From the NCBI RefSeq assembly GCF_003217235.1, contig NZ_QJTF01000023.1, positions 1 through 60,274 of the forward strand: a stretch of 60,274 nt of DNA, given 5' to 3'. Of this stretch, positions 21,728 to 48,247 are shown piece after piece. The notes under the pieces are model-generated. The model ran no database searches. It was given only the letters and a program-made list of their open reading frames with translations, and was not told where the DNA came from. Every line of letters begins with the position of its first letter. Within the stretch, counting starts at the first letter, position 1. This stretch comes from Paramesorhizobium leguminum (GTDB lineage Bacteria > Pseudomonadota > Alphaproteobacteria > Rhizobiales > Rhizobiaceae). The position numbers and the translations under genes are program-made.

Positions 21728-22780
21728 TCAAGCCGCCAAAATAGGTGATTCGGCTCGAACATTCCCAGCTCCAAATAGGAGCTGTTGTTCGGGCCGGTCG
21801 GCGTCCGTTTTCCCGGACATAAGCCCCTTTATTACGCTTTCGGAAAGGGATTCAAGTTGCCCATTAAGGGTAATTTGCCCACTTAGAGAAAAATACTTCA
21901 ATAAAATCAATATAGATATAAGCTTTTCTTCTCTCTTATTGTAGAACATGGATGTGTACATTTGTGCGCTCTTAATTATTTCCTCCGCCTCTGCCGGGTT
22001 ATCGTTGTAATAACTTATCTTCTCTTCCAAATCTGAGATGTCATCATTCAAAAGAACAAAATGGAAGCCAGGTACTAACAAGCCTTCCATAAACCAGGTT
22101 TCATATACGCATTTCGGCATCATGCAGAGTGAATTGCTTGACATTATCCATTTCAAATTTGTAGCTACATCATTTCCTTCCACGGAAACTATGTATTTAT
22201 ATCCAAGCTGTTGCTCCATAGACAGCCAAGGCTTCATAAGCTCCGGAAGCTCCCCATTTACCAATCCGATGTCGCAGAGGGGGCTGTCGTGATATAATTT
22301 AGCAAGGTTCACTCGTTTTATATTGTTGCTGCGTCCTCTCCAGACGGCCATATTCTTCTTTGCGCGAAAGCTAAGCGTATCTTTCGCTTCCTTGAAATGT
22401 CTCACCTTATTCAAATTCATAATGACGGAATTTGGATTATTTCCATCTATCGGTCTGCTTTTGACAATTGATGGCTCGTCAGGAATTGTTATTACATCGC
22501 CAAAGACATAGGAAATCCTGATGTCTGGCTGAAAGTACCGAGCATATTGCTTTAAATCGTAATAATATAGGCTTTTATTCTTGTCGATATTATTGATGGT
22601 TGCACTATTCAAGCTGAATTCATTATTCAATTTGTTATAGTAATTCACCCTGTAAAGCAGTGATTCAATTTCATTGCTGCTGTAGTCGTCTAATGTCCTG
22701 GAAAGTTTTTCATAAAATATTGATTGAGGTATATTGTCAGTAATGAAATTTTTTATATAGTATAGCGCGCGAACCGACAT
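21728..22780 (-). CDS. Glycosyltransferase-like protein, GT90 (LpsA/CAP10) type
   Basis: A 350-residue protein that resembles the lipopolysaccharide-modifying GT90 family. MAVWRGRSNN, KYIVSVEGNDVATNLKWIMSSNS and the following CMMPKCVYETWFMEGLLVPGFH are the family's acceptor/donor-site region. GT90 enzymes in bacteria transfer sugars such as xylose to LPS or capsule. Codons are A/T-rich, unlike the GC-rich neighbours, which points to acquisition by transfer. It stands alone between GST and csp with no polysaccharide operon. The start Met (MSVRALYYIK) is plausible; an overlapping short frame further upstream hints that the 5' end may be damaged or longer. Confidence 0.78.
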   Translation of the reverse strand: MSVRALYYIKNFITDNIPQSIFYEKLSRTLDDYSSNEIESLLYRVNYYNKLNNEFSLNSATINNIDKNKSLYYYDLKQYARYFQPDIRISYVFGDVITIPDEPSIVKSRPIDGNNPNSVIMNLNKVRHFKEAKDTLSFRAKKNMAVWRGRSNNIKRVNLAKLYHDSPLCDIGLVNGELPELMKPWLSMEQQLGYKYIVSVEGNDVATNLKWIMSSNSLCMMPKCVYETWFMEGLLVPGFHFVLLNDDISDLEEKISYYNDNPAEAEEIIKSAQMYTSMFYNKREEKLISILILLKYFSLSGQITLNGQLESLSESVIKGLMSGKTDADRPEQQLLFGAGNVRAESPILAA

Positions 22781-22975
22781 TTTTATTCATCCCCCACCCC
22801 TCTAGCCCTTCATCACAAGGCGCGAGGGAATTTTTTGTGTTTTCCCTCCAAGCGTGTGCGATTTCGGTATAACTGTCAAGGCTAAAATGCGGCAAATGCG
22901 GCGGTATTGTGACCTTATCGAGGGGGTATTCCGCTGCTTCATCGGGTGATGCCGCCATTCCGTACGTCAGTTCAA

Positions 22976-23003
22976 AAACAAAAAAGGCGGGGTTGCCCCC
23001 GCC
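22976..23003 (-). terminator. Terminator of the second csp gene
   Basis: GGCGGGG (22986-22992), loop TTGC and CCCCGCC (22997-23003) form a 7-bp GC stem, followed on the minus strand by a T-rich tract (complement of AAAAACAAAAAA). Confidence 0.9.
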
Positions 23004-45142: not shown

Positions 45143-45219
45143 GGGCCTGTAGCTCAATTGGTTAGAGCCGGCGGCTCATAACCGCTTGGTTGGGGGTTCG
45201 AGTCCCTCCGGGCCCACCA
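45143..45219 (+). tRNA. tRNA with CAU anticodon, likely tRNA-Ile2 (lysidine type)
   Basis: 77 nt. The acceptor stem is GGGCCTG / CGGGCCC, the discriminator is A and CCA is encoded. The anticodon loop is CTCATAA, with anticodon CAT. The TPsiC loop is TTCGAGT. The variable-loop region after the anticodon stem (GCTTGGTTG) follows the E. coli ileX/ileY pattern rather than that of elongator tRNA-Met, so it probably carries isoleucine after TilS modification; a Met annotation is the alternative. Confidence 0.9.
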
Positions 45220-45796
45220 AATTATTCTTCGAATAAATTCGGCGATTCGGTCGATGAATGCGATCTGTAAGATAAAAAAGTCCAAGCAAAGTATTGGCTA
45301 ATAAATTTCCAAGGGCGAAGCCGTAAATTCCCCAAAAAACCACGAATGAAGTGCCCGCCCAATGGGGGAAGTATTTGATGATAACATAGGTTTCCAGCCC
45401 GTAATAAACGAACCCCATCAGATAAAGAGTAAGCGATAAAAATGCCAAATAGCCAAACAGGAACGAGAGGAAACGACGACGTGATAGCTTTTCCGGTTCG
45501 GTTCTATATGGATCTCGCAACGTAACCGGTGATGAACCTGGCATGATTTCATTCATTTCTTCGCCGCCGAACGTAGCAACCGCGGCCAATGCCGCAACGA
45601 AAAAACCAGTAAGAATGCTCAGTAGATCGCTTGATCGACCCAGAATGTCCATCTTCGCGGCCGCGTCTCGGAAATCAGAAGACAGCGTAGGAAGAAGAAA
45701 AAAACAAGCAAATACAATCGGAAAAACCAGATCAAATTTGGTTTTCTCGGGATGGCGTATCAAGAGATATTTGAGAGGTACAAAGAGCCTCCACAT
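45176..45796 (-). CDS. Four-helix membrane protein of the tRNA-linked islet
   Basis: A 206-residue protein with four predicted transmembrane helices (about 22-38 FDLVFPIVFACFFLLP, 55-75 LLSILTGFFVAALAAVATF, 108-132 FLSFLFGYLAFLSLTLYLMGF and 147-175) and a basic loop (PEKLSRRRF). No family is recognised. Its last residues (GPEGLEPPTKRL) and stop come from the antisense of the tRNA gene, so either the gene lost its own stop on insertion or the annotated end is longer than the active protein. The start ATG at 45796 overlaps the upstream gene's TGA by one base. AT-rich codons. Confidence 0.72.
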   Translation of the reverse strand: MWRLFVPLKYLLIRHPEKTKFDLVFPIVFACFFLLPTLSSDFRDAAAKMDILGRSSDLLSILTGFFVAALAAVATFGGEEMNEIMPGSSPVTLRDPYRTEPEKLSRRRFLSFLFGYLAFLSLTLYLMGFVYYGLETYVIIKYFPHWAGTSFVVFWGIYGFALGNLLANTLLGLFYLTDRIHRPNRRIYSKNNLVGPEGLEPPTKRL

Positions 45797-46746
45797 CAAC
45801 TCACCAGCAGCTTTCTCATTTCCTCGATTATTTCGTCGCTTATTTTTTCACTAATGTCAGCAAGGGGCGTCGTAAATTTGACCTCTGCCGTCCGAATGAA
45901 GAATGCCTCACCTGCGTCCATTTTTGTAGTGTCGATTTTTGCACTCTGTGGTTTTGTGCTCGAAGGATCTTTCCATCGAACCCGCATGCTACTGTAACCT
46001 TGACCGTTTGCCCATGCTTTCACTTTTTCCACGACGGTGAGGGCTTCTCCGTCAGGCAATTTTCCGGAGATTGAAAGGTTCAAATTTCGTCTGGCAGTTT
46101 TGATAAATATGGCTTCATCGAACCCGAAATCCTGCTCGACATAATCAATCAGTTCGATGTGAAGAAGTCTCCCCTCTTGCAAGGAATCCTTCAACTGTTG
46201 GGAAGCGTGACCGTGTAACTCAACCATTGGCCGGGTCTTAATATTTTTCTTGTCATCTCGCTTAAATGAGAACTCATGATCGTCACAAATGGCCTTAAAC
46301 TGTGAACGAAAGAAGTTTTGTACCAGTGTACGTCCGAAACCGGTCACATCCTCCATCACCATCCGATAGAGATGACTACCAGGCTTCGTTGGCGCGGTAT
46401 GCAGCAGAACATGGACTGATAGTCCTCCTACCTCATCTTCCTTCTTCTCAAAGATTCGAACCCCACCGGTCTTAATGTTGGTAACGCCAGCATCGGCTTT
46501 TTCGCGGTCTCCGAGGCAAAGCAGCAGGCTAGCTGCGGTCGAGCCATCACCCAGCTTAATGTCTTTCATCTCCATAAGACGGATGATGCGGCGTCCTGCA
46601 TCGATTTCTTCAACCGCTATACTATTACCACATCGCTTCTTTAATTCAGGTAGAAGATCGTTCAAATCGATTGGGGGTGCATCACTAGGATATGGAGCCA
46701 TGGAAAAATCGAAGTAGAGGACAAAGCGTTGGTTGCGTTGCAGCAT
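45796..46746 (-). CDS. Unknown 316-residue protein of the tRNA-linked islet
   Basis: A soluble protein of unknown family. It begins FVLYFDFSMAPYPSDAPPIDLNDLLPELKK and contains HVLLHTAPTKPGSHLYRMVMEDVTGFGRTLVQNFFRSQFKAI in the middle and KVKAWANGQGYSSMRVRWKDPS toward the end. The C-terminus is helical. No Walker, nuclease or DNA-binding motif is evident. It overlaps the membrane gene by TGATG, so the two form an operon. The AT-rich composition and the tRNA neighbour suggest horizontal acquisition. Defence or conflict function is an inference only. Confidence 0.7.
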   Translation of the reverse strand: MLQRNQRFVLYFDFSMAPYPSDAPPIDLNDLLPELKKRCGNSIAVEEIDAGRRIIRLMEMKDIKLGDGSTAASLLLCLGDREKADAGVTNIKTGGVRIFEKKEDEVGGLSVHVLLHTAPTKPGSHLYRMVMEDVTGFGRTLVQNFFRSQFKAICDDHEFSFKRDDKKNIKTRPMVELHGHASQQLKDSLQEGRLLHIELIDYVEQDFGFDEAIFIKTARRNLNLSISGKLPDGEALTVVEKVKAWANGQGYSSMRVRWKDPSSTKPQSAKIDTTKMDAGEAFFIRTAEVKFTTPLADISEKISDEIIEEMRKLLVS

Positions 46747-46849
46747 TTACTAAACCCTAGAATCAGCCTTCACAAAGGTCATACACGCTCAATATATCAA
46801 TATAAGAGTCAAGTTTTATCGCCATCAAAAGCTGCATTGCTGCGCCACC

Positions 46850-48247
46850 TTAACCTATTTTTCCACTCCCCCATCTCCCCCTCCTAACCCACCTTCCCAA
46901 CAACAACACCGCCACCACCGCCAGCCCCAGAAACAGCCCCGTCCAAATCCCCGCGCCGCCATACCCCGCCCGAAACGCCAGCCAGGCGCCCAGCGGCATC
47001 CCTACGCCCCAATAACCAATCGCCGCGTAGATCATCGGCATCGTCGTATCATGCAGGCCGCGGAGGTTGCCGCTGCCGACTGCTTGCGCGCCGTCGGCGA
47101 TCTGGAAGAGGGCGGCGAAGGCGAGGAAGGTTACGGCGAGGCGGACCACCTCTTCGTTGCGGGGGTCGTGGATATCGATGAAGCCGGAGATGAGGAGGCG
47201 GGGGGCGAGCAGCATTACCAGCGCCGTCAGCGTCATGAAGCCGACGCCCAGCATGTAGGCGGTCCAGCCGGTGCGGCGGATGCCTTCCGGGTCGTTTGCG
47301 CCGAAGAAGCGGCCGACGCGGACGGTTGCGGCCTGGCCGAAGCCGAGCGGCACCATGAAGGCGATTGCGCTGATCTGGATGGCGATGGCGTGGGCAGCCA
47401 GAGACGATGCGCCTATGAGGCCCATCAGCAGGGCCGCGCCGTTGAAGAGCGCCACTTCGAAGACGACGATGGCCGCAATCGGCAGCCCCAGCCGCACGAT
47501 CTGGGAGAGACGCTGCCAGTCGGCGCGCCAGAACCTTCCGAAGAGCCGGTAGCGGCGGAACTGCTTTTCCCTCAACACGACGATGGCGAGGCCTGTAAAC
47601 ATCAGCACGTTGGAGAGCGTCGTGGCGAGACCCGAGCCGACGACGCCCAGCGCCGGGAAGCCGAGCTTGCCGAACATCAGGCACCAGTCGGCAAGCGCAT
47701 TGAAGGCGACGGCGAAGACGACCACGATGGTGGCCCAGCCCGGCCGCTCGAAGGCGGTGACGAAGGAGCGCAGCACGATATAGCCATAGAAGGGCAGGAT
47801 GCTCCATTGCAGCGCGTGCATGTAGCGCCCCGCTTCACGGGCGAGTTCGGGCCTCTGTCCCATCAGCAGCAAAATCTCCTCGGTGTGCCAGAGGATGAGC
47901 CAGAGCGGCAGAGAGATGATGAGCGCCAGCCAAAGGCCCTGGCGGACCGTGCGCCTCACCTCGCGCACGGAATGGCGGTTGGTGCCCAGCTCCTTGGCGA
48001 GCATGGGGGAGGTGGCGAGCACCAGCCCCATGCCGAAGAACATCGGCGTGAAATAAAGGTTGGAGCCCAGCGCGCCGGCGGCGAGCGTATCGGGGCTGAG
48101 CCAGCCCATCATCATCACGTCGGTGGCGGTCATCGCCGTCTGCGCGAGGTTGGTGAGGATGATCGGCCATGCCAGCGCCAGCATGGCGCGCGCCTCTTCC
48201 CAATAGGAATCGACCTTGAGCAAGCGCGTTTCGGTAAGGGTGGCCAT
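46850..48247 (-). CDS. MATE-family multidrug efflux transporter (NorM-like)
   Basis: A 465-residue inner-membrane antiporter with 12 helices in two MATE halves. The family motifs are LAWPIILTNLAQTAMTATDVMMMGWL at the start, ALGSNLYFTPMFFGMGLVLATSPM, the mid-domain AHAIAIQISAIAFMVPLGFGQAATVRVG and RNEEVVRLAVTFLAFAALFQIADGAQAVGSGNLRGL. It exports cationic or neutral toxicants with Na+ or H+. It is adjacent to the islet but has GC-rich codons and belongs to the chromosomal core. Confidence 0.94.
   Translation of the reverse strand: MATLTETRLLKVDSYWEEARAMLALAWPIILTNLAQTAMTATDVMMMGWLSPDTLAAGALGSNLYFTPMFFGMGLVLATSPMLAKELGTNRHSVREVRRTVRQGLWLALIISLPLWLILWHTEEILLLMGQRPELAREAGRYMHALQWSILPFYGYIVLRSFVTAFERPGWATIVVVFAVAFNALADWCLMFGKLGFPALGVVGSGLATTLSNVLMFTGLAIVVLREKQFRRYRLFGRFWRADWQRLSQIVRLGLPIAAIVVFEVALFNGAALLMGLIGASSLAAHAIAIQISAIAFMVPLGFGQAATVRVGRFFGANDPEGIRRTGWTAYMLGVGFMTLTALVMLLAPRLLISGFIDIHDPRNEEVVRLAVTFLAFAALFQIADGAQAVGSGNLRGLHDTTMPMIYAAIGYWGVGMPLGAWLAFRAGYGGAGIWTGLFLGLAVVAVLLLGRWVRRGRWGSGKIG

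What the first reader, a model, noticed from the sequence alone, without database searches (positions are those of the whole stretch)
45143..46849. AT-rich two-gene islet of unknown function at a CAU tRNA
Two overlapping minus-strand genes (a 316-residue protein with no recognisable fold, then a four-helix membrane protein) sit between a tRNA and a MATE pump. They have much lower GC than their neighbours, are translationally coupled by TGATG, and the last residues of the membrane protein are encoded by antisense tRNA sequence. A soluble partner with a membrane protein in a tRNA-linked islet is a layout shared by many anti-phage and interbacterial systems. That function is inference; the sequence shows only the pair, its composition and its location.
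Basis: partly seen in the sequence, partly recalled or inferred. Interest (0 to 1): 0.8.

Follow-up and report, generated by a model that had tools for sequence, protein, structure and literature searches.

The report
Two-gene RexAB-type phage defence islet
A small foreign two-gene cassette beside a tRNA gene most likely protects the bacterium from viruses: one protein senses infection and the other damages the cell's own membrane to stop the virus, as a related pair has been reported to do in Pseudomonas putida.

Summary
Two intact, AT-rich genes overlapping by TGATG lie between a CAU tRNA and a MATE gene; the membrane protein's last 13 residues are read from antisense tRNA. Both proteins match PADLOC's unpublished candidate defence system PDC-M53 (E 5.6e-32 and 1.1e-34). 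Of 88 loci with the membrane gene, 87 have the soluble gene within 35 bases upstream; the exception starts at a contig edge. Relatives occur in phages, prophages, a plasmid and chromosomal islets. One IMG/VR copy, L182, fits the published RexABpp pair (PP_5643/PP_5644) of P. putida prophage P1 in residues, mass and gene order. In that paper both genes are needed for phage defence and the membrane protein is the growth-suppressing effector (PMC12894663). So the window pair is most likely a RexAB-type defence module. Five of five congeners keep the site without the pair; one carries another PADLOC candidate pair there (PDC-M30-like). Homology to lambda RexA/RexB themselves, and defence by this copy, are not shown. 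Verdict: new member of a known kind; the PDC-M53/RexABpp link is the useful result.

The parts
45796..46746 (-). Gene A, 316-aa soluble protein, PDC-M53A / RexApp family; proposed DNA-binding infection sensor
   Evidence: PDLC04696 E 5.6e-32; model pLDDT 87.9; 27% identity to L182 A over 285 aa, E 8.5e-13 in a two-sequence comparison
45176..45796 (-). Gene B, 206-aa membrane protein modelled with four long helices, PDC-M53B / RexBpp family; proposed membrane-damaging effector
   Evidence: PDLC04699 E 1.1e-34; model pLDDT 91.5; 37% identity to L182 B over 126 aa, E 4e-17 in a two-sequence comparison
45794..45798 (-). TGATG overlap of A's stop and B's start, suggesting translational coupling
45143..45219 (+). 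tRNA gene, anticodon CAU; left border of the islet; its antisense strand encodes B's last 13 residues
45220..46849 (.). AT-rich islet, GC 0.456, absent from this interval in 5 congeners
46799..46828 (-). sigma-70-like site ahead of A (TTGATG, 18, TATATT; 9 of 12); weak, 0.4 expected by chance in the 401 bases scanned
46850..48247 (-).

Best explanation
The pair is a two-component anti-phage module of the PDC-M53 family, to which the tested RexABpp system of P. putida prophage P1 belongs. Inferred working: A is made with B from one coupled message and acts as a cytosolic DNA-binding sensor. During infection A is triggered, probably by phage DNA or DNA-protein intermediates, and activates B. B is a four-helix protein in the inner membrane that assembles into leaky oligomers; the leak stops growth and aborts the infection. 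Shown here: the pair, its family, strict coupling of the two genes, mobility, models, and homology to the pair identified as RexABpp. Shown in print for RexABpp: both genes needed for defence, RexApp binds DNA, RexBpp suppresses growth and damages membranes when RexApp is overproduced. Inferred: that the window's copy does the same, and its trigger.
For: PADLOC PDC-M53A and PDC-M53B hits. Coupling: 87 of 88 B loci have A within 35 bases upstream; the exception starts at a contig edge. In 9 loci found through A alone, two of them the same locus, B is adjacent in all 9. Among 90 frames flanking viral copies, the families hit most often are repressors, CI-like proteins, Q-like antiterminators and integrases, each by at most 10 of 90. 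L182 fits RexABpp: 6 of 7 published PP_5644 residues, the seventh off by one; mass of the His-tagged A 37.47 kDa with the GTG start, against 37.5 published; a repressor-like gene upstream and, by my reading, HicB and HicA downstream, as published for P1. L182's proteins hit PDC-M53A (2.4e-141) and PDC-M53B (2.8e-72). A plasmid copy lies directly beside a type ISP restriction enzyme. The same tRNA site in congener G751 holds another PADLOC candidate pair. Function of RexABpp: PMC12894663.
Against: Identity to the tested pair is only 27% (A) and 37% (B). Lambda RexA/RexB profiles give no significant match; two of the A alignments scored no better than column-shuffled decoys. Known homologues Sbash gp30/gp31 fail the same test, so it has little power. 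RexA (8TWQ) is not among the 50 listed of 926 PDB fold matches of A; I did not check that the fold library holds it. No CI repressor or prophage was seen next to the window copy. No phage test exists for this copy. In P. putida, two-hybrid tests did not show RexApp-RexBpp contact, and reintroducing rexApp alone did not restore defence. L182 was identified by inference: the mass fits only with the GTG start (33.76 kDa from the first ATG), HicBA is by eye (no PADLOC hit), and its IMG taxon number is recalled as P. putida KT2440.
Confidence: 0.72

Rival explanations
1. A prophage-derived pair whose main role is tuning the lysis-lysogeny choice, with phage exclusion a side effect, and idle outside a prophage.
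For: Repressors and antiterminators are the families hit most often beside viral copies. Lambda RexA biases the bistable switch (PMC11077077, passages incl. abstract).
Against: Several copies show no phage genes that I recognised in the 16-19 kb read around them: beside gyrB (L047), beside what reads as a topoisomerase gene (L045), between what read as chemotaxis and ribonucleotide reductase genes (L205; 9 kb read); one is on a plasmid by a restriction enzyme. In P. putida, repressor promoter activity was not influenced by rexABpp.
Confidence: 0.12
2. A Butters-type arrangement: A is the active antiviral protein and B only holds it in check at the membrane.
For: Described for a Rex-like system in mycobacteriophage Butters (discussion of PMC12894663). 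The layout alone cannot tell it apart.
Against: In RexABpp, the nearest tested relative found, both genes are needed and B is the effector.
Confidence: 0.1
3. A distant Kiwa system (KwaA membrane tetramer with KwaB DNA binder).
For: Same sizes and part types: about 315-aa soluble plus about 195-aa membrane protein.
Against: No Pfam hit of any kind, KwaB included. Profile comparisons empty. Kiwa chains are in the PDB sequence set but not recognised by title among the 50 listed fold matches of A or B. Gene order is reversed.
Confidence: 0.03
4. A decaying prophage remnant with no present function; B's tail, made of tRNA antisense, marks a damaged gene.
For: No integrase relative or attachment repeat found in the window. 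B's end is tRNA-derived.
Against: Both frames are open with few amino-acid changes against saturated synonymous change. B's tail is not conserved: 31 of 55 homologues (85% non-redundant) stop within 8 residues of a loosely defined last motif.
Confidence: 0.08

Closest known systems
PDC-M53 (PADLOC-DB 2.0.0 candidate defence system)
   Same: Both proteins hit its profiles over most of their length, and the genes are adjacent in the family's usual order.
   Different: The window copy stands alone beside a tRNA. The name PDC-M53 occurs in no paper of the library searched.
RexABpp, PP_5643/PP_5644 of P. putida prophage P1 (PMC12894663)
   Same: Homologous proteins (27% over 285 aa and 37% over 126 aa to L182), same order, soluble protein plus four-helix membrane protein.
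   Different: RexABpp lies in a prophage operon behind a CI-like repressor. The window copy lies between a tRNA and a MATE gene, with overlapping genes and a tRNA-derived B tail.
Lambda RexA/RexB
   Same: Two-component layout and the proposed sensor/effector roles.
   Different: RexB is 144 aa against 206; no significant sequence or profile match. PADLOC keeps RexA/RexB as separate families.
Kiwa (KwaA/KwaB)
   Same: Sizes and part types.
   Different: No homology detected; membrane gene first.

Membership tests
PDC-M53 (PADLOC) | M53A profile match | tested here: met
   PDLC04696 E 5.6e-32, residues 3-314 of 316
PDC-M53 (PADLOC) | M53B profile match | tested here: met
   PDLC04699 E 1.1e-34, residues 4-184 of 207
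PDC-M53 (PADLOC) | A and B adjacent, same strand | tested here: met
   general in the family: 87 of 88 loci
RexAB-type, RexABpp lineage | both proteins homologous to PP_5643/PP_5644 | tested here: met
   given that L182 is prophage P1 (identified by inference)
RexAB-type | soluble protein plus four-helix membrane protein | tested here: met
   models; crude hydropathy gives three segments in the window's B
RexAB-type | sequence or fold likeness of A to lambda RexA | tested here: inconclusive
   no significant match (50 of 926 listed); positive control Sbash gp30 fails too
RexAB-type | sequence likeness of B to lambda RexB | tested here: inconclusive
   control Sbash gp31 fails too
RexAB-type | next to a CI-like repressor in a prophage | tested here: not met
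   no such gene read among the neighbours; repressor families are among the commonest neighbours of viral copies. Read as typical rather than defining, since stand-alone copies exist
RexAB-type | A binds DNA; B arrests growth; both needed for defence | not testable with these tools
   published for RexABpp (PMC12894663)
Kiwa | KwaB domain and KwaA homology | tested here: not met
tRNA-integrated element | integrase gene | tested here: not met
   tblastn of three prophage integrases against the window: none; other integrase types not tested
tRNA-integrated element | direct repeat of the tRNA 3' end | tested here: not met
   25-base 3' end, up to 3 mismatches: one copy only in the window
tRNA-integrated element | site kept without the insert in relatives | tested here: met
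   5 of 5 congeners keep tRNA and MATE without the pair, but with other cargo or DUF475

The most novel reading that the evidence does not exclude
PDC-M53 and RexABpp are one large, strictly coupled immune family that has left prophages repeatedly to live as stand-alone host islets and on plasmids. The tRNA-CAU/MATE interval of this genus is a small swap site where such cargo (PDC-M53, a PDC-M30-like pair, an HSDR_N protein) replaces each other, with a tRNA antisense strand recruited as the effector's C-terminal tail.
Probability: 0.6. Interest if true: 0.58.

Novelty: new member of a known kind. Interest (0 to 1): 0.5.

Why it matters
An unpublished candidate family (PDC-M53) gains a tested function through its link to RexABpp, which turns many unannotated prophage gene pairs into likely RexAB-type systems. 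The RexABpp paper counts only five RexAB-like systems described so far. Stand-alone islets such as this one would let the sensor/effector mechanism of RexAB, still unsettled for lambda rex, be studied away from lysogeny control.

Tried and rejected
Kiwa was the first guess from sizes; profile tests gave nothing. Lambda RexA/RexB profiles, deepened with IMG/VR relatives and Sbash gp30/gp31, gave nothing significant. For two A alignments the scores (15.0, 16.3) lie within 60 column-shuffled decoys each (maxima 23.6, 19.6); the A3 score of 18.8 had no decoys of its own. A3 and the larger A set both align the last 60 or so columns to the same RexA stretch, a weak lead only. The published HHpred link of PP_5643 to RexA could not be reproduced here. 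A RexA family search of 249 genomes found nothing, nor did its controls, so it shows nothing. PDB fold searches of A and B gave no match at E <= 1e-3. BFVD gave four uncharacterised phage proteins for A at E <= 1.8e-8. Profile searches of PDB sequences gave only weak, seemingly unrelated hits: best E 0.001 for A, 0.01 for B. First tests of PP_5644 residues on the 88 loci reached at most 3 of 7, and a motif-spacing test showed nothing. An IMG/VR scan with A alone found no relative. Two Salmonella plasmid hits of A were not examined further.

Full report
What is there. Between a CAU tRNA (45143-45219, +) and a MATE gene (46850-48247, -) lie two minus-strand genes: A, 45796-46746, 316 aa; B, 45176-45796, 206 aa. 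A's stop and B's ATG overlap as TGATG, and 44 bases of B, including its stop, lie inside the tRNA, so the last 13 residues come from antisense tRNA. The islet 45220-46849 has GC 0.456 against 0.596 for the whole window, and third-position GC of 0.45-0.48 against 0.82-0.87 in its two neighbouring genes. Against four relatives, synonymous change is saturated (pS 0.80-0.90) and amino-acid-changing differences are few (pN 0.18-0.30), so both proteins look constrained.

What family it is. Pfam gives nothing and NCBIfam only a sub-threshold hit for A. PADLOC identifies the proteins as PDC-M53A and PDC-M53B, a candidate defence system; PHROGs gives phage families of unknown function. The name PDC-M53 appears in no paper of the library searched. 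A paper on Bacillus cereus calls the PDC systems unpublished candidates (passages, PMC11811056).

Coupling. A profile of B found 165 relatives in IMG/VR, of which the best 80 were kept. With eight other loci this makes 88 B loci (55 of 87 A proteins remain when made non-redundant at 85%). In 87 the A gene lies within 35 bases upstream on the same strand; the exception, L134, starts at the contig edge. Four of the 87 A frames are shorter than 280 aa; I did not work out why. In a second set of 30 IMG/VR loci, some on the same contigs, all 30 carry A; over all 118 loci, A of at least 150 aa was found in 116, the others being L109 and L134. In 9 loci found through A alone, two of them the same locus, B is adjacent in all 9; two further plasmid hits of A were not examined.

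Habitat. I picked 90 frames flanking viral copies mechanically; the families hit most often are repressors, CI-like proteins, Q-like antiterminators and integrases, each by at most 10 of the 90. Named examples: Salmonella phage F1055 and a prophage of E. coli E7476, between the antitermination and holin genes, the only one of 5,426 E. coli genomes with at least 80% of that query. Others lie on a Sulfitobacter plasmid beside a type ISP restriction enzyme, beside gyrB, and, by my reading of translations, beside a topoisomerase gene and between chemotaxis and ribonucleotide reductase genes. Occurrence is sparse: 3 of 397 genomes of the order, 2 of 398 of the phylum and 3 of 61 relatives, the window's own genome counted each time.

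The site. Five of five congeners keep the gene left of the tRNA, the tRNA and the MATE gene but lack the pair, and the 18-kb stretches around the site show no DNA like the islet. G751 has instead another PADLOC candidate pair: the first protein hits PDC-M30A (3.6e-15), the second PDC-M41B (8.6e-54) and PDC-M30B (2.2e-52) and is DUF5131. G749 has an HSDR_N protein, with no PADLOC hit at 0.01, and G752 a fragment that resembles its end; G750 has a family 25 glycosyltransferase; G749, G750, G752 and G753 share a DUF475 gene, identified by Pfam in G749 and by eye in the others. The interval therefore exchanges cargo. Whether a tRNA-specific integrase did this is not shown: neither an attachment repeat nor a relative of three integrases was found in the window.

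Structure. A is modelled with mean pLDDT 87.9 and B with 91.5, B with four long helices; crude hydropathy counts three segments in the window's B and three or more in 55 homologues. Neither model has a PDB match at E <= 1e-3.

Link to a tested system. Rosendahl and colleagues (PMC12894663; abstract and sections 7, 8 and 12 read, passages of others) report that PP_5643/PP_5644 of P. putida prophage P1 form a RexAB-type defence pair. Both genes are needed; RexApp binds DNA non-specifically; RexBpp has four predicted membrane helices and suppresses growth with membrane damage when RexApp is overproduced. Their two-hybrid test did not show contact between the two proteins, reintroducing rexApp did not restore defence, and most arrested cells kept their integrity. 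The paper holds neither 'PADLOC' nor 'PDC'. Seven PP_5644 residues can be read from its mutant list. The IMG/VR locus L182 matches six, and its threonine lies at 102 rather than 103; of the 30 loci scored, no other exceeds five, and none of the first 88 exceeds three. With the GTG start, L182's A has a mass of 37.47 kDa with a His6 tag, against the published 37.5; from the first ATG it would be 33.76. L182 has a repressor-like gene upstream and frames that I read as HicB and HicA downstream, the order described for P1. Its IMG taxon number, 637000222, is P. putida KT2440 by my recollection. L182's proteins hit PDC-M53A at 2.4e-141 and PDC-M53B at 2.8e-72, and the window's proteins align with them at E 8.5e-13 and 4e-17 in a two-sequence comparison. 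So PDC-M53 and RexABpp are very probably one family, and the window pair belongs to it.

What stays open. Kinship with lambda RexA is claimed in print for PP_5643 by HHpred and DALI, and none was found there for PP_5644. I could not reproduce it: two A alignments score within shuffled decoys, 0 of 46 A members hit PADLOC's RexA profile even at E up to 10, and the known homologues Sbash gp30/gp31 fail the same profile test, so that test is weak. No experiment bears on the window's own copy, and the trigger is unknown. In one search, 22 papers hold at least three of the terms PADLOC, RexAB, candidate and PDC; none of the 15 listed contains RexAB, and 7 were not listed. Within those searches I found no statement of the PDC-M53/RexABpp link in print; no preprints are held.

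Noticed in passing
L040:5219-7362 (congener G751, same tRNA-MATE interval): A different PADLOC candidate pair occupies the same site: PDC-M30A plus a DUF5131 protein that hits PDC-M41B and PDC-M30B almost equally.
   Followed up: partly
L041:11119-12165 and L043:11017-11256: A 348-aa HSDR_N-domain protein beside the same tRNA in one congener, and what looks like a remnant of its 3' end in another.
   Followed up: partly
window 21728-22780 (-): The most AT-rich of the 1-kb windows tabulated (GC 0.408 at 22001-23000) overlaps a family 90 glycosyltransferase, perhaps also acquired.
   Followed up: partly
L058:8063-9646: The pair sits between the antitermination and holin genes of an E. coli prophage. 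921 of 5,426 E. coli genomes match the query; one covers at least 80% of it, and the other 29 listed rows cover only its first 81-92 bases, which suggests a site shared with other cargo.
   Followed up: no
L043:11029-11331: Another reading frame runs into the tRNA antisense at the same site in a congener and ends there, so tRNA-derived tails can arise here repeatedly.
   Followed up: no
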